Of a DNA stretch of 64,000 bases, positions 8,162 through 19,627 are shown piece after piece (within the stretch, counting starts at the first letter, position 1; the number at the start of each line of letters is the position of its first letter). The DNA lies in NCBI RefSeq assembly GCF_000011385.1, contig NC_005125.1:2108001-2172000 (forward strand), given 5' to 3'. The translations under genes and the position numbers were made by a program. The notes beneath the pieces were generated by a model. The model had not been told where the DNA came from and did no database searches. It saw only the letters and a program-made list of their open reading frames with translations. The DNA comes from Gloeobacter violaceus PCC 7421. Its GTDB lineage: Bacteria; Cyanobacteriota; Cyanobacteriia; Gloeobacterales; Gloeobacteraceae.

Positions 8162-9397
8162 ATGAAAAACGATGCTCCAGGCCGGCCTTTCCGGCGCTCG
8201 ACCCTGCTGCGGTGGGGATTGGCTTTGGCTCTATTCGGTTCGGGTGTGCTGCGGGCCGGTGCCCAGGAGAAGTCGGCCGTGAAGATGCTCAGCGACGCGC
8301 AGACCCGTTTTGGTTTGCAGCTTTTTGCGGCCCTGCACAACAAAGCCGCCGACCAGAACGTCGTGATTTCTCCCTTGAGCATCGCCCTGGCGCTCACCAT
8401 GGCCTACAACGGCGCAGGCGGCTCCACCCGCACCGCCATGGCGCAAACCCTTGCCCTTGATGGACTGGACGAAGACGCCATCAACCAGGGTTCGGCGGAC
8501 CTTGCCACTGCCCTGCAAAAAACGCCCAAAACCTCCAGAGTCCTGATCGCCAACTCGCTTTGGTCCCAAAAAGGCATTACCCTGCAACCGGCCTTTATCC
8601 GTACCGCCGAGCAGTACTTTCAGGCACAGGTGGAAGCACTGAATTTTGCCGAGCCGCGCTCCGCCGAGCGCATCAACCGCTGGGTGGCCGAAAAAACCGA
8701 GAACAAAATCGATCAGATCGTCTCTCCAGGAGCGTTGCGCGACGCGCTGGTGGTGCTGATGAACGCGGTCTACTTCAAGGCGGACTGGCAGGAGGCGTTC
8801 GAAAAATCCGCCACCCGCGAGCGACCGTTCAAGCTCGGGAGCGGCTGGCAGAAGAACCATCCGCTGATGGCGAAGCAGGGCCGCTTCGATTACTACGAAA
8901 CCGACGAATTCCAGGCGGTGCGGCTGCCCTACAAAGACGATTTTCTGGGAATGTACGTCTTTTTGCCCAAGGCGGACCCGGCGGCTTTTTACCGGCAATT
9001 GACCGCCGAGAACTGGCAGCAATGGCTGGGTCCGCGTACCTTTGCCCGTCGGCCCGGAGAACTGGTCCTGCCCCGCTTTCAGGTGCGCTATGAAGCGCAA
9101 CTCAAACAAACTCTGAGCGCCCTGGGCATGGGTATTGCTTTTACCGGCCGGGCCGACTTCACGCGAATGGTTCGCGAGCCGGCTTTGATTTCCGAGGTGA
9201 TCCACAAGACCTTCGTCGATGTTAACGAGGAAGGCACCGAGGCGGCGGCGGCCACCGGCGTGATCGTGGCGCGCACCTCCGCCGTCGCCACACCACCTTT
9301 TCGGATGGTGGTTGATCGCCCGTTTTTCTTTGCCATCCAGGACAACCGCACCGGAACGCTGCTATTTGCAGGAGCAATTGCCGACCCGATGGGTTGA
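8162..9397 (+). CDS. Serpin family serine/cysteine protease inhibitor, exported
   Basis: 411 residues. It has a Tat-like or Sec signal (RRSTLLRWGLALALFGSG) and then the complete serpin fold: NVVISPLSIALALTMAYNGA, VLMNAVYFKADW, and the C-terminal PFFFAIQDNRTGTLLFAG. The reactive-loop hinge near residues 355-365 reads EEGTEAAAAT, matching the consensus of inhibitory serpins (Gly at P15, Thr at P14, then small residues), so it should be able to trap a protease as a covalent complex. P1 is probably the Arg or Thr of ARTSAV, which would favour a trypsin-like target. The target could be an endogenous periplasmic protease or one released by competitors or predators. Confidence 0.93.
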   Translation: MKNDAPGRPFRRSTLLRWGLALALFGSGVLRAGAQEKSAVKMLSDAQTRFGLQLFAALHNKAADQNVVISPLSIALALTMAYNGAGGSTRTAMAQTLALDGLDEDAINQGSADLATALQKTPKTSRVLIANSLWSQKGITLQPAFIRTAEQYFQAQVEALNFAEPRSAERINRWVAEKTENKIDQIVSPGALRDALVVLMNAVYFKADWQEAFEKSATRERPFKLGSGWQKNHPLMAKQGRFDYYETDEFQAVRLPYKDDFLGMYVFLPKADPAAFYRQLTAENWQQWLGPRTFARRPGELVLPRFQVRYEAQLKQTLSALGMGIAFTGRADFTRMVREPALISEVIHKTFVDVNEEGTEAAAATGVIVARTSAVATPPFRMVVDRPFFFAIQDNRTGTLLFAGAIADPMG

Positions 9398-11164: not shown

Positions 11165-11310
11165 GTGTATGCTTACAGCACAATCGAATGGCTTTGGGAG
11201 CCCGGGGGATCAGCCCGGGCTGAAAGGGGAAAGTCCGGTGCGAGTCCGGCGCTGTGCCGCAGCTGTGATGGCTTGAGAGCAAGCCTCAGTCAGAATGCCC
11301 GTCCCACAAA
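11165..11310 (+). promoter_or_regulatory. Cobalamin (B12) riboswitch
   Basis: The core GGGGAAAGTCCGGTG at 11227-11241, the GCTGTGCCGCAGCTGTGATG run at 11251-11270 and the closing CAGTCAGAATGCCCGTCC at about 11286-11304 match the cobalamin-riboswitch (B12 box) consensus in order and spacing. A GCCCGGG/CCCGGGC stem lies just upstream. It precedes the TonB receptor gene, whose start it would repress when adenosylcobalamin or another cobalamin is plentiful. The 5' limit is approximate. Confidence 0.9.
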
Positions 11311-11356
11311 AGCCGCATTCCACTCGACCCGCGTCGCACGGGGAAGGAGTATTTTT

Positions 11357-13408
11357 GTGCGTGGCATTGTCTTGGTGCCCCTGGCAGTCTGGCTATTGAC
11401 ATGGCCGGCCGGGGCGGAACGTGTGCAGGATTTTCGTCCCCAGGCCGCCCCGGGGGCAAAGGATCTGTTGGCCCAGGAGGTACCGGGGGCGCCCAGGCCA
11501 CTCGAAGGCTTCGCCGATACCCGGCTCAACCAACCGCTTTATGCCCCGTTTCGCCGCGAAGGGACGCTCAAAGAAGCGAGCCGTCCCGCCTACGTGATCA
11601 CCCGCCGGCAGATCGAAGCGCAGGGGGCACGCACGGTGCAGGAGGCGCTCCGTTACCTGCCCGGAATTCTTAGCGACGGCACCGCCGGCACGCAACTGGG
11701 AACCCTCAGCTCCCAGTTCATCCGCGGCTCCAACAGTTCCCAGGTGCTCGTGCTGCTCGACGGCAGACCGCTCAACGACCTGGGCTTCTTCGGCGGCTAC
11801 GACCTGTCGGAATTGACCACCGATACGGTGGAGCGTGTCGAGGTGGTGCCCGGCGGCGGTTCGACCCTCTACGGCTCCGACGCGGTGGGAGGAGTGATCA
11901 ACATCGTCAGCCGCGCCCCATCCGAGCGGCCGAGCACGACCCTCAAAGCCTCTGCGGGCAGCTTCGCTCTCAACGAGCAAAGCCTGCAGACCAGCGGTCG
12001 CAGCGGGGCGGTCGGTTGGCGCGTCGACTACAACCGCCTGCAGGCGAACAACAACTTTCCCTTCGAGATCGCCTCGGTGGGTTATGCCGGGACGCGCGAG
12101 AACGCCGACGTTACTTATAACAACTTCAGCGCCCGGCTGGAAGCGGATCTAAGCGAACGGACGGCACTCAGTGCAAGCGTCCTTTCGCAAAACAAAGACC
12201 TGGGGGTGCCGGGCGGGGTGCCTATCCCGATACCGGGCAGTGTCGGCCAGTTCAACACCCTCACCACCGACACCCGCCAGTTCACCAACAACTGGCTTGC
12301 GGATCTGGGTCTGCGTGCCAAGCTCGGGCTGGGCGAAGATTCGCTGCTCACCGCGAGACTCTTTGCCGATTTTCTCAACTACCGCTACGACGCACCGCTA
12401 AGCCAGGGTTCGCGCGACGAGATCCGCCGCCGCTCCTGGGGGGCGCAAGTGCAGCACACCTGGCGGGTGAGCCCCGAGCACCACCTCACCTACGGTCTGG
12501 ATTACCGCACCGTCTCGGCCTTCAACTCGACGTACCTCTATCCGCTGGCTGCCACCAACATCAACTACGACGGCCAGGTGGGCCAGGGAGCGCTCTTCGT
12601 GCGCGACGAAATCGCCCTGGGCGAAGATCTCAAGCTCAACCTCGGGCTGCGCCAGGACATCAGCGGCCTGGCCAAAGGCTCGTTCACTTCTCCCAGTGCC
12701 GGGGTGCGCTGGCAGGTGGGCGAGGACATGGCATTGCGGGCCAATTACGCCCGCAGCTTCCGCGCGCCGCTGCTGTCGGATCTCTATTTCAAGTTGCGGG
12801 GCTTTTTCACCGTCGACGGCAACCCGGACCTCAGACCCGAGCAGGGCGACAGCTACGACATCGGCATCGATCAAAAAATCGGCGAGGCCGCCCTGGTGCG
12901 CCTCACCTACTTCGCCAACACCGTGGCAGATACCATCGCCTTTACTTTTACAGGCCCCACCTCGGGTTCCTACGCCAACCTCGGCCTGGTACGCAGCACC
13001 GGCATCGAGGCGAGCATCGAGGTGCGACTGGCGCCTTCGTGGTACCTCTCAGTCAATTTCACAGGCACCGAACCGCGCATCCTCGCTGATGCCAACCCGG
13101 CCTACGTGGGCAAGGAATTGAGCTTTCGTGGGGCTGACAGCTTCAACGCCTCGCTCGCCTACGAGTCAACAGGAGGCTGGTTCGCGGGTCTGTTTGTGCA
13201 CAGCGTCGGCCGGTTTTTCACCGACAACGCCAACACCGAAGCCCTGGGCGGTTACACGACCACCGACTTGAAGCTGCGCTTGCCGCTCACCGACAACTTG
13301 AACTTTAACGCCCAAGTGAACAACCTATTCAACCAGCAGTACCAGGTCTACCCGGGCTATCCGGGCGTGGGGATCAACTTTCGCACCGGCTTGAGCTGGA
13401 CGATTTGA
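11357..13408 (+). CDS. btuB: TonB-dependent outer-membrane receptor, vitamin B12 type
   Basis: 683 residues. I chose the GTG at 11357: it follows AAGGAG by 7 bases and opens a signal peptide (VPLAVWLLTWPAGAE), whereas starts further upstream would lie inside the riboswitch. The plug domain is clear: VITRRQIEAQGARTVQEAL, FIRGSNSSQVLVLLDGRP, VERVEVVPGGGSTLYGSDAV and GGVINIVSR. A 22-strand-type barrel follows, ending in an aromatic residue cluster (GINFRTGLSWTI). Control by a cobalamin riboswitch argues for cobalamin import across the outer membrane, energised by TonB-ExbB-ExbD. Cobinamide or another corrinoid is also possible. Confidence 0.9.
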   Translation: MRGIVLVPLAVWLLTWPAGAERVQDFRPQAAPGAKDLLAQEVPGAPRPLEGFADTRLNQPLYAPFRREGTLKEASRPAYVITRRQIEAQGARTVQEALRYLPGILSDGTAGTQLGTLSSQFIRGSNSSQVLVLLDGRPLNDLGFFGGYDLSELTTDTVERVEVVPGGGSTLYGSDAVGGVINIVSRAPSERPSTTLKASAGSFALNEQSLQTSGRSGAVGWRVDYNRLQANNNFPFEIASVGYAGTRENADVTYNNFSARLEADLSERTALSASVLSQNKDLGVPGGVPIPIPGSVGQFNTLTTDTRQFTNNWLADLGLRAKLGLGEDSLLTARLFADFLNYRYDAPLSQGSRDEIRRRSWGAQVQHTWRVSPEHHLTYGLDYRTVSAFNSTYLYPLAATNINYDGQVGQGALFVRDEIALGEDLKLNLGLRQDISGLAKGSFTSPSAGVRWQVGEDMALRANYARSFRAPLLSDLYFKLRGFFTVDGNPDLRPEQGDSYDIGIDQKIGEAALVRLTYFANTVADTIAFTFTGPTSGSYANLGLVRSTGIEASIEVRLAPSWYLSVNFTGTEPRILADANPAYVGKELSFRGADSFNASLAYESTGGWFAGLFVHSVGRFFTDNANTEALGGYTTTDLKLRLPLTDNLNFNAQVNNLFNQQYQVYPGYPGVGINFRTGLSWTI

Positions 13409-13417
13409 GGAGCGACG

Positions 13418-14323
13418 ATGAGCACCGCATTTGAACGCCGCGTCCAACCGCTGGGACGCACGACCTACGAAAGCCAGCCTTCCGGCTGGACGCACGAGTA
13501 CGAAGACTTCGACAGCCGCCTCGATGTGGTCGGACCGCTGCTGTACACACTCTTTCAGGAGCGCTGGCGGGAAGTCCAACTGGGCTACGTCGTCGAAGGG
13601 GGCGTCTTCGAGCTGGAAATGCCTGCATCTCCCAAGTTGTGCGTACTCTACGACGGTTACCTGACCGTCATCAGTGAGTCGTGGCATATCCATCTGTGCG
13701 TGGCACCCTGCCTCGGCGGCCCGGAGCGCAAGACCCCACCCGAGTTGAGCGAGCGGCGGCAACTGAGCCGGGCGGCCTTCTACCGCTTTGTCGATCCCGG
13801 GGGCGAACCCAAAGGCTGGGGCATCCAGTTCTGGAATGGCTGGGGCGAAAAACTGATGAGTATCTTTTTACCCAATCCTTATCTGGGTGAGGACGACGAC
13901 CTGCTGCCGGAGGGTAAGGCCCGCTTCGAAAAACTCGGTCTCTACGACGAGTTGCGTGCCATCTACGTGCTTGGAACCCGTCCGATTCCGTTTGAAGATA
14001 ATCCCCTGACGCGCCCCTATCTGGCGGTGTGCACCTCCAGCCGCTGCAACCCGTCGCGCCGCTGGCAGCCGGTGGCCGAGGCGCTGCGCGCGGCGCTGGC
14101 CGAGGCGGGATCGCCCGTCGCGGTGATCGAAGCGCCCTGCCTGCAGGTGTGCAAACTCGGTCCAGTCGTCTACCACTCCGGCGATGACACCTGGTACACC
14201 CGCGTCACCCCGGCGGTGGCCGGACGCATCGTCCAAGAACACCTCGGCCGGGGGCAAACGCTCGCCGAGCACCGCTATCCCTGTGTCCAACACGTTGATC
14301 ACCATTCCAAGGAGCAGCTATGA
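13418..14323 (+). CDS. Uncharacterised domain fused to a thioredoxin-like 2Fe-2S ferredoxin domain
   Basis: 301 residues. The C-terminal third (about 198-290) has Cys205, Cys210, Cys241 and Cys245, the C-x4-C / C-x3-C pattern of thioredoxin-fold 2Fe-2S ferredoxins (NuoE-like). The N-terminal 190 residues include WHIHLCVAPC, a possible metal site, and KTPPELSERRQLSRAAFYR; I recognise no characterised enzyme there. The gene begins 9 bases after btuB, inside the riboswitch operon, and overlaps the next gene by 4 bases. A role in cobalamin or cobalt handling, perhaps reductive release of the corrin, is inferred from position and from the Fe-S domain. Confidence 0.8.
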   Translation: MSTAFERRVQPLGRTTYESQPSGWTHEYEDFDSRLDVVGPLLYTLFQERWREVQLGYVVEGGVFELEMPASPKLCVLYDGYLTVISESWHIHLCVAPCLGGPERKTPPELSERRQLSRAAFYRFVDPGGEPKGWGIQFWNGWGEKLMSIFLPNPYLGEDDDLLPEGKARFEKLGLYDELRAIYVLGTRPIPFEDNPLTRPYLAVCTSSRCNPSRRWQPVAEALRAALAEAGSPVAVIEAPCLQVCKLGPVVYHSGDDTWYTRVTPAVAGRIVQEHLGRGQTLAEHRYPCVQHVDHHSKEQL

Positions 14324-14901
14324 CTCTCACACATCCGAAACCGGCCGCGCCGAGTGCAAACTTTCCGCTCGCCAGGCTCTCCCGGCAGTGGCCGACGCTG
14401 CTGGTGGGCCTCGGGTGCGGCAGCAGCCTTTTCTATACCTGCACCGTGCCGCTGGTGGGCTTGGGCGTCACAGCCGGCCTGACGCTGCCGCGCTCTGTGG
14501 CGCTGCGGGTGATTGGGGCGGTCTGGCTGGCCAATCAACTCCTGGGCTACACACTGCACGCCTACCCGCGCACCCCGCAGTCCTTCGCCTGGGGTTTCAT
14601 TTTGGGTTTGGGAGCCGTCGCCGTGACGCTGGTGGCTTCCCGGGCAGTCTCCTGGCGCGGCGGGTTGCAGCGGCTGGAGGTGCCTACCGCCGCCTGGGTG
14701 ACGGTGGTGGGCTTCTGCATCTATGAAGGGCTGATCTTGCTTGCGAGCCTGGCACTCGGCGGACTGGAAAGCTTCACCCCGGCCATCGTCGGCGGTATCT
14801 TCCTCACCAATGCCCTGTGGGCTGCAGGCTTGCTGGGGCTGCACGCCCTATTCCAAAACCGTCGCCCGCCTGTGCTGCCGCCCGACTCTTGGCAACCGTG
14901 A
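14320..14901 (+). CDS. Small integral membrane protein, candidate inner-membrane cobalamin/cobalt transporter
   Basis: 193 residues with about five or six membrane segments (first near residues 25-50). Conserved-looking features are GLGCGSSLFYTCT with two Cys, WLANQLLGYTLHAYPRT, and SFAWGFILGLG. It overlaps the ferredoxin-like gene by an ATGA, so the two are translationally coupled. Its size and its place behind a riboswitch-controlled TonB receptor recall small single-gene B12 transporters of the BtuM kind, but I cannot confirm membership. A fragment of a second copy lies at 17417-17461. Confidence 0.65.
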   Translation: MTLTHPKPAAPSANFPLARLSRQWPTLLVGLGCGSSLFYTCTVPLVGLGVTAGLTLPRSVALRVIGAVWLANQLLGYTLHAYPRTPQSFAWGFILGLGAVAVTLVASRAVSWRGGLQRLEVPTAAWVTVVGFCIYEGLILLASLALGGLESFTPAIVGGIFLTNALWAAGLLGLHALFQNRRPPVLPPDSWQP

Positions 14902-17467: not shown

Positions 17468-19627
17468 TCAAAACTGGAGCGATAGCGTGCCCAGCACCGT
17501 CAGCGGCGGGTTCGGGTAAAGGCCGAGCCCTTCGGTCGTGTAGTCTCTGGCGCTGGTGAGGTTCTTGAAATTGACCACGAGCCGGTAGTTGCTGAAGGCA
17601 TAGTATATGGCTGCATCGGCCCTCAGTACGGCGGGGATGGTAAACGAATTGGGCAGAGAAGCTTCTTTTTCACTGGCGTAGTAGAGCCCTAAACCCAAAC
17701 CCAGACCCGCCAGGCTCGATTCGCGCGCGAAGAAGTACGTCGTCCACAATGTCGCCCGGTTGACCGGCGTGTTGAATAGCCGGTCGCCTACCGGGACGAT
17801 ATCGTCGCGGCTGACGTAGGCGTCGGTCAGGGCGCAGGTGGCAATCACATTCCAGCCGGGCAAGATCCGACCGGTGATGTCCAGTTCGATACCGCGGCTT
17901 TTTTGCTCACCGGTCTGCACACCGAACAGGGGATTTTCCAGGTCGGCGCGCACCACATTCTGGCGGGTGATGTCGAAGAACGCCAGGTTGGCCGAGAGTT
18001 GGCCGGGAATGAGATCTTGCTTGACGCCGAATTCGAACTGGCGGCCGGTGGTGGGCTGCAACTGGGTGTTCCCGCGAGTACGGGTGTTGAATTGCGGAAC
18101 AAAAGCGGTTGAATAGCTGAAGTACAGCGAGGTTGTATCCCCTGGCTGCCAAACGAGCCCGGCCCGCGGCGAGAGGTTGTTCAAAAATTGCTGATTTTCG
18201 AGCAAACCGCTCAGTCGGTCACGGATGAGCGAATCGACATAGTCGTAGCGCACGCCCGCGAGCAACTTCAGATTTGGGGTGAACTCGACAAAATCTTGCA
18301 AGTAGACGCCGATATTGTCGGAGCCGGTCTCGGAGAGGGAAAACGGAACAAATTCCGTCGGCAAATCGCCGTAGACCGGGTTGTAGATGTCGATGGCGTC
18401 GAACGTCGGAGCGGCAAACACGTCGGAGCGGTAGCGGTAGCGGGACAACTCGACACCGAACAGCACATTGTGCTGGATCGAGCCGGTGGAGAACTTGCCA
18501 AAAATCTCGTTTTGCAAGGAGTAATTTTCGTTTCCTTCGTTATCCAGCAGCGGTAGACGGGGGAGCGTGCGCCTATCCGGCAGCAGAAAAAACGGAAAGG
18601 TTTGGCGGTTGTCGTATTTGACCAGGGTCATATTAAAGCCCTGCCGAAACTTCCACCCCTCGGCGAAGCGGTGTTCGAGCACGGCGGTGAGCGCGTTGGA
18701 ATCGGTCTTGCCCTGATCAAAGGCGGGCTCGCCCAAAAATCGGTTGGGGGGCAAATCCAAAAACTCGACTTCGAGCGGGAAAGCCTGTTGGAATCGGTTG
18801 TTGAAGCGCTGGTACTCGTATTCCAGGCTCAAATCCGTGCGCTCGTCAATCTTCCAGGCGAGCGCCGGGGCGACAAAGACGCTCTCGCTTTGGCCAAAAT
18901 CTTTGAACCCGGCGTCGTTCTCGTAGGCGGCGTTGAGGCGGTACGACAGCGAAGCGTTGGCCGTGAGCGGTCCGCCGAGATCAAGCGTTCCCCGGTAAAG
19001 GCTGTAGTTGCCGAAGACCAGTTCCGCCCCGGTGCGCGCAGCGGCCAGGGGCTTTTTGGTGACGACGTTGATCAGACCCGTACCGGCGCCGAAGCCGCCG
19101 CTAGAGCCGTAGAGCACCGCTGCCGGTCCTTTGAGAAATTCGACGCGCTCGACATTCGCCATCTCCCGTGGACTAATCAGGCCAAAGTCGCGAAAGCCGT
19201 TGCGCAGGTGCTCCCCGAACAAGTTGAAACCCCGCACTTGAAAGCTGGGCGTCGAAACGCCCCCAAAACCGGTGAACTGCTGCACACCTGCGACGTTGTC
19301 CGCCAGTTCGTTGATGCGCAGCACCTGCCGATCTTCGATCACCTGGCGGGGGATAACCTGGATCGACTGGGGAATGTCCCGCAGGGGCAGATCGAGCTTG
19401 GTGGCCGTGCCGGCATCTTCGATCCGGTAGCTGCGCTCGCCTGTTACAAACACCGGCTCAAGATCGGTAGGCGCGGTCGGGTCGGCCGACGGAGCGGTGG
19501 GTCTCAGCACCGGTCCGAGTTGGGCTGCACCCGGCTCGGCAGCGGGCTGAGGGTAAGCGGGCCAATCGAGTCGGATGGCGACGGCCAGCGCCAGCGCCAG
19601 ACTTCCGGTGAGCAATCTCGGTTGCAT
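17468..19627 (-). CDS. TonB-dependent siderophore receptor
   Basis: 719 residues. The signal peptide ends before residue 30. A TonB box-like EPVFVTGE stands near residue 60, followed by the plug (DIPQSIQVIPRQVIEDRQ, FQVRGFN, VERVEFLKGPAAVLYGSSG, INVVTKKPL) and a beta-barrel ending LGTLSLQF with the terminal Phe. The GGFGAGTGLINVV and DIPQSI motifs place it in the FhuA/FcuA-type ferric-siderophore group. There is no N-terminal signalling domain, so it probably does not drive an anti-sigma cascade. The Tat-exported DJ-1/PfpI gene lies 24 bases upstream on the same strand. Confidence 0.9.
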   Translation of the reverse strand: MQPRLLTGSLALALAVAIRLDWPAYPQPAAEPGAAQLGPVLRPTAPSADPTAPTDLEPVFVTGERSYRIEDAGTATKLDLPLRDIPQSIQVIPRQVIEDRQVLRINELADNVAGVQQFTGFGGVSTPSFQVRGFNLFGEHLRNGFRDFGLISPREMANVERVEFLKGPAAVLYGSSGGFGAGTGLINVVTKKPLAAARTGAELVFGNYSLYRGTLDLGGPLTANASLSYRLNAAYENDAGFKDFGQSESVFVAPALAWKIDERTDLSLEYEYQRFNNRFQQAFPLEVEFLDLPPNRFLGEPAFDQGKTDSNALTAVLEHRFAEGWKFRQGFNMTLVKYDNRQTFPFFLLPDRRTLPRLPLLDNEGNENYSLQNEIFGKFSTGSIQHNVLFGVELSRYRYRSDVFAAPTFDAIDIYNPVYGDLPTEFVPFSLSETGSDNIGVYLQDFVEFTPNLKLLAGVRYDYVDSLIRDRLSGLLENQQFLNNLSPRAGLVWQPGDTTSLYFSYSTAFVPQFNTRTRGNTQLQPTTGRQFEFGVKQDLIPGQLSANLAFFDITRQNVVRADLENPLFGVQTGEQKSRGIELDITGRILPGWNVIATCALTDAYVSRDDIVPVGDRLFNTPVNRATLWTTYFFARESSLAGLGLGLGLYYASEKEASLPNSFTIPAVLRADAAIYYAFSNYRLVVNFKNLTSARDYTTEGLGLYPNPPLTVLGTLSLQF

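What the first reader, a model, noticed from the sequence alone, without database searches (positions are those of the whole stretch)
11165..14901. Cobalamin-riboswitch operon with two uncharacterised partners of the TonB receptor
After btuB come a 301-residue protein ending in a C-x4-C/C-x3-C thioredoxin-like 2Fe-2S domain and a 193-residue membrane protein coupled to it by ATGA. The riboswitch predicts a role in corrin or cobalt uptake. The Fe-S protein could reduce the cobalt or free it from the corrin, and the membrane protein could be the inner-membrane permease.
Basis: partly seen in the sequence, partly recalled or inferred. Interest (0 to 1): 0.6.

Follow-up and report, generated by a model that had tools for sequence, protein, structure and literature searches.

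The report
Alternative vitamin B12 uptake operon
Three genes under a vitamin-B12-sensing RNA switch look like a B12 uptake route in which one small membrane protein stands in for the usual ATP-driven importer, and an iron-sulfur protein with a heme-carrier-like fold probably receives the vitamin inside the cell.

Summary
In detail: RF00174 riboswitch (11182-11321), BtuB-like receptor, 301-aa Fe-S protein, and a 193-aa membrane protein coupled by ATGA. Of 26 sampled cyanobacterial genomes with the Fe-S protein (Pfam DUF7676), the 20 without the membrane gene carry BtuF and the 6 with it do not: displacement of BtuFCD. The membrane family (57 loci: cyanobacteria, Proteobacteria, Verrucomicrobia) recurs with cobalamin riboswitches (32 of 57 within 4 kb upstream), TonB receptors (24), DUF7676 (21), or cob and metE genes. 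Its AlphaFold model most resembles ECF S-components (best Z 12.3), the fold published for BtuM, but I found no sequence link to BtuM. All 60 aligned members have Cys (40) or His (20) just before an invariant Pro in periplasmic loop 1; BtuM's Cys is in loop 3. No EcfT was found in 27 of 28 non-cyanobacterial genomes, so the protein probably works alone there. The Fe-S protein models as a HutX/ChuX-like domain plus a thioredoxin-like [2Fe-2S] domain: I propose a cytoplasmic corrinoid acceptor and reductant. Transport, corrinoid binding and reduction are not shown. Part of the family may already bear the annotation name BtuN, whose sequence I could not obtain.

The parts
11182..11321 (+). cobalamin riboswitch aptamer (RF00174)
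   Evidence: cmscan 46.9 bits, model positions 1-189 of 189
11357..13408 (+). BtuB-like TonB-dependent receptor, 683 aa, GTG start
   Evidence: Pfam Plug 1.2e-26 and TonB_dep_Rec_b-barrel 6.6e-53; TIGR01779 193.8 bits, below its cut-off
13418..14323 (+). 301-aa DUF7676 + [2Fe-2S] protein, proposed cytoplasmic corrinoid acceptor and reductant
   Evidence: PF24724 E 7.7e-61; profile hits on solved [2Fe-2S] domains, best E 1.7e-10; AlphaFold pLDDT 88.4
13469..13966 (+). DUF7676 domain, residues 18-183, HutX/ChuX-like in the model
   Evidence: PF24724 stretch 18-183; VIA Z 10.8 to 2hqv, 10.6 to ChuX 6u9j, 9.9 to HutX 5exv
14012..14287 (+). thioredoxin-like [2Fe-2S] domain, residues 199-290, ligands C205, C210, C241, C245
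   Evidence: VIA Z 14.5 to FeSI 5abr; invariant cysteines in 16 of 16
14320..14901 (+). 193-aa membrane protein, proposed inner-membrane corrinoid permease replacing BtuFCD
   Evidence: no Pfam or NCBIfam match
14440..14442 (+). codon of Cys41 in loop 1, candidate axial cobalt ligand
   Evidence: Cys in 40 and His in 20 of 60 aligned members

Best explanation
A cobalamin-repressed corrinoid uptake operon. The riboswitch turns the operon on when cobalamin is scarce. The BtuB-like receptor brings corrinoids across the outer membrane. The 193-aa membrane protein, which models like an ECF S-component, takes the corrinoid at its periplasmic face and carries it across the inner membrane in place of BtuFCD; I propose that the loop-1 Cys (His in a derived cyanobacterial clade) ligates the cobalt of the corrinoid. 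The 301-aa protein receives it in the cytoplasm in its HutX/ChuX-like domain, and its [2Fe-2S] domain passes electrons to the cobalt, which readies the corrinoid for adenosylation. Shown by computation: riboswitch, gene order, exclusion of BtuF/BtuC, both predicted folds, the Cys/His pattern. Inferred: transport, ligation, carrier and reductase roles.
For: RF00174 found in 22 of 25 scanned DUF7676 loci, the window included (one of 26 not scanned). BtuF: 20 of 20 genomes without and 0 of 6 with the membrane gene (1/C(26,6) = 4.3e-6, not corrected for kinship). BtuC of the operon type (over 450 bits): 10 of 10 sampled without, 0 of 6 with. The 6 genomes of 386 with a strong membrane-gene match are all among the 26 with DUF7676. 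Of 57 named loci: riboswitch within 4 kb upstream 32, TonB receptor 24, DUF7676 21, metE 5, at least one of these or DUF1636 46. The same trio lies on plasmids of Methylocella tundrae, with RF00174, and Gloeocapsopsis dulcis, without. Fresh sample: of 6 further hits in the order of Beijerinckia, all 6 lie near a cob gene, RF00174, a TonB receptor or a BtuF-like gene. 14 of 28 non-cyanobacterial genomes lack both a full FecCD permease and EcfT. Model resemblance to S-components; uncharged loops 1 and 5, positive loops 2 and 4. DUF7676 keeps H90-x-H92-x-C94 in 16 of 16 across cyanobacteria, Proteobacteria and Verrucomicrobia. Published: Anabaena btu operon with a ferredoxin-like gene between btuB2 and btuF (PMC10878165, passages).
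Against: No biochemical evidence. Foldseek gave no match at E <= 0.001 for the membrane model, and VIA Z near 12 can be a mere common arrangement in helical proteins (note). 25 of 57 loci have no riboswitch within 4 kb upstream in my table, only some because the contig ends; none of the 20 His-type loci has a TonB receptor within 4 kb upstream. G320 has the pair without BtuB next to it and a second copy with no RF00174 in 14 kb. DUF7676 outside cyanobacteria lacks the [2Fe-2S] domain in the 11 proteins aligned, so reduction cannot be its general role. A full FecCD permease exists in 14 of 28 non-cyanobacterial genomes and a distant one in G000, so other routes remain possible.
Confidence: 0.6

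Rival explanations
1. The membrane protein is a true ECF S-component that borrows a cellular EcfT/EcfA module, not a solitary carrier.
For: Fold resemblance; EcfT-type CbiQ matches in 28 of 28 cyanobacterial genomes searched; in one locus a His-type member directly follows cbiM, cbiQ and an ABC ATPase gene (L091).
Against: No CbiQ match in 27 of 28 non-cyanobacterial genomes that carry it. Cyanobacteria often have such modules for cobalt, nickel or other vitamins (recalled), so presence there says little.
Confidence: 0.15
2. The membrane protein handles cobalt or a corrinoid precursor, or serves another step of the cobalamin regulon, above all in the His-type clade.
For: His-type: 0 of 20 with a TonB receptor upstream, but neighbours include metE, DUF1636/CobW and cbiMNQO; some Cys-type members sit inside cobS/cobU/cobB clusters.
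Against: Cys-type members, P0002 included, pair with TonB receptors in 24 of 37 loci, which points to a large substrate taken up from outside.
Confidence: 0.15
3. The operon takes up heme or another tetrapyrrole and only answers to cobalamin.
For: DUF7676 models on heme carriers HutX, ChuX, HemS, PhuS; the receptor also scores on heme-receptor models (TIGR01785 150.4 bits).
Against: Cobalamin riboswitches in 22 of 25 scanned loci; TIGR01779 (B12) is the best receptor model; the co-resident ABC system in 20 genomes matches the arrangement shown to import cobalamin in Anabaena (PMC10878165 passages).
Confidence: 0.06
4. The membrane protein is a corrinoid trap, modifier or sensor rather than a transporter.
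For: The S-component fold also occurs in receptors (PMC11109136, passages); BtuM chemically modifies its substrate (PMC6072759, parts 1-2).
Against: It replaces BtuFCD outright in 6 of 6 sampled genomes, and no signalling domain is attached.
Confidence: 0.08

Closest known systems
BtuM of Thiobacillus denitrificans (PMC6072759)
   Same: Small six-helix membrane protein, mostly in Gram-negative bacteria, found by BtuB/B12 context, S-component-like fold, essential Cys near the periplasmic surface, works without an ECF module.
   Different: BtuM's Cys80 lies in loop 3; here the Cys or His lies in loop 1. BtuM's Cys is reported invariant; here a third of aligned members have His. No PDB chain matched the 60-sequence profile at E <= 10. 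I had no BtuM sequence for a direct comparison.
ECF transporter S-components (RibU, FolT, BioY, PanT, ThiT)
   Same: Top 15 VIA matches, 14 of them titled as ECF S-components or ECF transporters (4huq is titled only 'a transporter'; recalled as ECF), Z 9.3-12.3, 142-167 residues aligned.
   Different: No sequence match; no EcfT found in 27 of 28 non-cyanobacterial genomes.
Anabaena PCC 7120 btuB2-alr4030-btuFCD operon (PMC10878165)
   Same: Cobalamin riboswitch, BtuB, ferredoxin-like gene in the same order; alr4030 is taken as the DUF7676 orthologue from order only.
   Different: BtuFCD present there; in the window the membrane gene takes its place.
HutX/ChuX/HemS heme carriers
   Same: DUF7676 model aligns over about 130 residues (Z 9.9-10.8).
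   Different: 13-18% identity; no hit by sequence; fused here to a [2Fe-2S] domain and placed in a cobalamin operon.
Thioredoxin-like [2Fe-2S] ferredoxins (Aquifex, Azotobacter FeSI)
   Same: Fold (Z 13.5-14.5) and sequence (1f37 E 9.1e-9); the C-x4-C spacing is this protein's own.
   Different: Here a C-terminal domain, not a free ferredoxin.
BtuN (annotation name seen in PMC7038796 and PMC8954225, one passage each)
   Same: Named there as a corrinoid transport gene beside BtuB.
   Different: Sequence not obtained; identity with this family is open.

Membership tests
Cobalamin riboswitch RF00174 | score over the family gathering cut-off, full-length match | tested here: met
   46.9 vs 31.5 bits, positions 1-189
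BtuB | over the equivalog cut-off of TIGR01779 | tested here: not met
   193.8 vs 599.7 bits; still the best-scoring NCBIfam model. Hence 'BtuB-like'.
BtuM | sequence similarity to BtuM | tested here: inconclusive
   No PDB chain at E <= 10 with 4- and 60-sequence profiles; no direct alignment possible
BtuM | invariant Cys in loop 3 as cobalt ligand | tested here: not met
   Loop 3 (about 79-85) has no conserved Cys; conserved Tyr82-Pro83 instead; the Cys/His is in loop 1
BtuM | binds cobalamin and supports B12-dependent growth | not testable with these tools
   needs expression
ECF S-component fold | six-helix S-component fold | tested here: met
   Top 15 of 999 chains, model pLDDT 90. Caution: Z under 13 in a helical protein, Foldseek E 0.75 at best for an S-component
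ECF S-component (functional) | partner EcfT/EcfA module | tested here: inconclusive
   EcfT in 28 of 28 cyanobacterial, 1 of 28 other genomes
HutX/ChuX heme-carrier family | fold | tested here: met
   Z 9.9-10.8 over about 130 residues
HutX/ChuX heme-carrier family | sequence-family match | tested here: inconclusive
   No such Pfam family or PDB chain listed; DUF7676 is a family of its own in Pfam
HutX/ChuX heme-carrier family | binds heme | not testable with these tools
   needs protein
Thioredoxin-like [2Fe-2S] ferredoxin | fold and four cysteines | tested here: met
   the Pfam model PF01257 itself stays under its cut-off (14.5 vs 24.8)

The most novel reading that the evidence does not exclude
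A second, BtuM-like but separate family of solitary S-component-fold corrinoid importers, spread over cyanobacteria, Proteobacteria and Verrucomicrobia, that catches the cobalt of the corrinoid with a loop-1 Cys (switched once to His within cyanobacteria) and hands it to a heme-carrier fold turned corrinoid chaperone, which in cyanobacteria is fused to its own [2Fe-2S] electron donor: a bacterial counterpart of the human B12 processor CblC.
Probability: 0.35. Interest if true: 0.75.

Novelty: new variant of a known kind. Interest (0 to 1): 0.6.

Why it matters
PMC6072759 (introduction) notes that many Gram-negative bacteria have BtuB but no BtuCDF and that the inner-membrane step is mostly unidentified. 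This family fills that gap in several lineages, gives a simple complementation test, and offers a natural Cys-to-His swap at a presumed cobalt ligand. It also gives a testable role to DUF7676, including the unassigned gene of the Anabaena btu operon.

Tried and rejected
Direct comparison with BtuM: not possible, no sequence at hand; no PDB chain matched by profile and BtuM did not appear among the 50 entries that VIA printed, which excludes nothing. Pfam and NCBIfam on all 60 members: only scattered single or double hits such as Bax1-I (2 members) and chlorophyll synthase (2), which I take as chance. Cobalt release from the corrin: no support found. Heme uptake: kept as a rival. Weak hits of the membrane profile in G195, G213, G382, G180, G290 (E 5.6e-9 to 4.5e-3) were not counted as members; a second G129 hit has six stops and a second G320 copy (L059) has no riboswitch nearby. 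In the mapping matches to loci I used coordinates only, and contig numbers did not match record names: several placements were plainly wrong (L098, L104 were not confirmed), so I kept only rows with a cmscan hit in the locus or its identical stretch (16 of 21 loci so scanned) or with an aptamer motif at the place; L076, L080, L083 and L105 rest on the weaker motif alone. The FecCD operon of G000 (L133) was not profile-scanned; from memory its binding protein looks heme-type. L092 is titled Gracilibacteria and was counted with the cyanobacteria on its gene content. The genomes of L119 and L122 were left out. Literature: ten searches gave no description of this family or of DUF7676; Perez 2016 and Vitreschak 2003 were not held, and the supplementary lists of PMC6072759 were not open.
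Full report
What is there. The window lies in a 4,659,019-base single-contig genome, the size I recall for Gloeobacter violaceus PCC 7421. An RF00174 riboswitch at 11182-11321 (46.9 bits) precedes a BtuB-like TonB receptor (11357-13408), a 301-aa protein (13418-14323) and a 193-aa membrane protein (14320-14901) whose ATG overlaps the previous TGA. The next gene is on the other strand. Pfam places DUF7676 (PF24724, E 7.7e-61) in the first half of the 301-aa protein; the membrane protein has no Pfam or NCBIfam match.

Does it recur behind cobalamin riboswitches? Of 386 cyanobacterial genomes, 26 hold DUF7676, and 25 of these have a BtuB-like gene beside it; the exception, G320, has metE upstream instead. 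RF00174 was found in 22 of 25 loci scanned, the window included; L032, L033 (contig end) and L034 had none, L070 was not scanned. This is the operon type described for Anabaena PCC 7120, riboswitch - alr4027 - btuB2 - alr4030 - btuFCD, in which mutants of btuD and tonB3 take up less cobalamin and alr4030 is only said to resemble ferredoxins (PMC10878165, abstract and passages). That alr4030 is DUF7676 is my inference from gene order.

Displacement. The membrane profile gave 6 strong matches among the 386 genomes (E <= 1e-44 for the best copy) and 5 weak ones that I do not count. All 6 are among the 26. BtuF of the operon type occurs in 20 of 26, exactly those without the membrane gene, and in 0 of the 6 with it. 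Operon-type BtuC (over 450 bits) occurs in 10 of 10 sampled genomes without and 0 of 6 with; 4 of those 6 have a distant FecCD protein (97-185 bits), 2 have none at E <= 1e-10. All 6 have a B12-dependent methionine synthase domain and CobS. So where BtuFCD is missing, this gene stands in its place.

The family at large. A scan of 84,980 species genomes gave 57 loci: 27 that I group with cyanobacteria, 26 Proteobacteria and 4 Verrucomicrobia by record title. My table (built) has a riboswitch upstream on the same strand within 4 kb in 32 of 57, three more at 5.5-5.9 kb and one at 7.5 kb; TonB receptor within 4 kb upstream in 24; DUF7676 in 21; metE in 5; 46 of 57 have at least one of these or DUF1636. 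By direct cmscan of 21 of these loci or their identical stretches, 16 have the riboswitch upstream. Other neighbours include CobS, CobU, CobB, a tetrapyrrole methylase, CobW and CbiM/CbiQ. Plasmid copies: Methylocella tundrae (RF00174 - TonB receptor - DUF7676 - membrane gene), Gloeocapsopsis dulcis (same trio, no RF00174 in the stretch), Qipengyuania citrea (beside a cobalamin-binding-protein gene) and, weakly matching, Acaryochloris marina (RF00174, near metE and ribonucleotide reductase genes); 4 of 5 records were opened, and the gene is labelled hypothetical in all 5. A fresh sample of 199 genomes of one alphaproteobacterial order gave 7 with the gene, the centre included; the 6 others all lie near a cob gene, RF00174, a TonB receptor or a BtuF-like gene, with RF00174 upstream on the same strand in 2 of 6.

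Solitary or ECF? CbiQ-type EcfT was found in 28 of 28 cyanobacterial genomes and 1 of 28 others. Full FecCD permeases occur in 14 of the 28 others; 10 have no match and 4 only partial ones under 34 bits. So 14 genomes lack both. Many are metagenome assemblies of unknown completeness.

Fold of the membrane protein. AlphaFold with 60 homologues: pLDDT 90, helices 16-38, 45-55, 58-78, 86-112, 121-146, 154-180. Foldseek found nothing at E <= 0.001; the S-components PanT and ThiT came at E 0.75-1.2 with probability about 0.85. VIA put ECF S-components in the top 15 rows (Z 12.3-9.3), ahead of NosY at 8.6. The tool warns that helical proteins can reach such Z by common arrangement; the uniform top list, the length and the six-helix layout make me accept the fold with that caution. 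Charges put loops 1, 3 and 5 outside (K+R per member 0.00, 0.63, 0.08) and loops 2 and 4 inside (2.15, 1.87). Pro44, Trp69, Asn72, Gln73 and Gly76 are invariant in 60 of 60. Just before Pro44 every member has Cys (C-x2-P, 40) or His (H-x-P, 20). The His type is one clade (support 0.996) inside the cyanobacterial part of the tree. BtuM uses Cys80 of loop 3 as cobalt ligand (PMC6072759, parts 1-2 of 5). A similar use of the loop-1 residue here is my inference.

Fold of the Fe-S protein. AlphaFold pLDDT 88.4. Residues 199-290 match thioredoxin-like [2Fe-2S] proteins by fold (FeSI Z 14.5) and sequence (best E 1.7e-10); residues about 13-186 match HutX/ChuX-type proteins by fold only (2hqv 10.8, ChuX 10.6, HutX 9.9). 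Across 16 DUF7676 proteins, 11 of them single-domain from other phyla, H90, H92, C94 and the DGYLT motif are invariant. I see no signal peptide (no predictor was run). Hence the proposal of a cytoplasmic corrinoid acceptor, with the [2Fe-2S] domain as an electron donor added in cyanobacteria.

Verdict. The membrane gene is very likely the inner-membrane step of corrinoid uptake; the Fe-S protein's role is less sure. What it works like: BtuM. What it is: a separate family as far as I could test, with the name BtuN (PMC7038796, PMC8954225, one passage each) as a possible earlier label.

Noticed in passing
L001 (G000:C1:4373311-4376448): A second cobalamin riboswitch of the genome precedes a 342-aa multi-spanning protein that looks like an EamA/DMT permease by eye; a possible further member of the cobalamin regulon.
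   Followed up: no
L003 (G000:C1:4388235-4391364): The third riboswitch precedes a 329-aa CbiX-like chelatase (by eye) with a His-rich tail.
   Followed up: no
L091 390-3882: A His-type membrane gene directly follows cbiM, cbiQ and an ABC ATPase gene behind a cobalamin riboswitch.
   Followed up: partly
L058 3442-9665: metE, a 152-aa protein without Pfam match and a TENA/Haem_oxygenas_2 protein lie between a riboswitch and the DUF7676/membrane pair; the 152-aa kind recurs by eye in L081, L087, L094 and L097.
   Followed up: partly
L087 8549-9346, L088 8734-9720, L093 8589-9602: Methyltransferase-like genes (Methyltransf_11 shown for L087, the others by eye) follow His-type membrane genes.
   Followed up: no
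L138 5956-7315, L149 3702-5085, L099: Cys-type membrane genes beside a BtuF-like binding-protein gene, with no BtuC or BtuD in the listed neighbours of L138 and L149.
   Followed up: no
L060 6400-6731 (G129:C6): A decayed second copy of the membrane gene with six stops, next to desaturase-like and methyltransferase-like genes.
   Followed up: no
window 8162-9397: A 411-aa protein that looks like a secreted serpin by eye.
   Followed up: no
window 17468-19627 (-): A second TonB receptor, siderophore type by eye.
   Followed up: no
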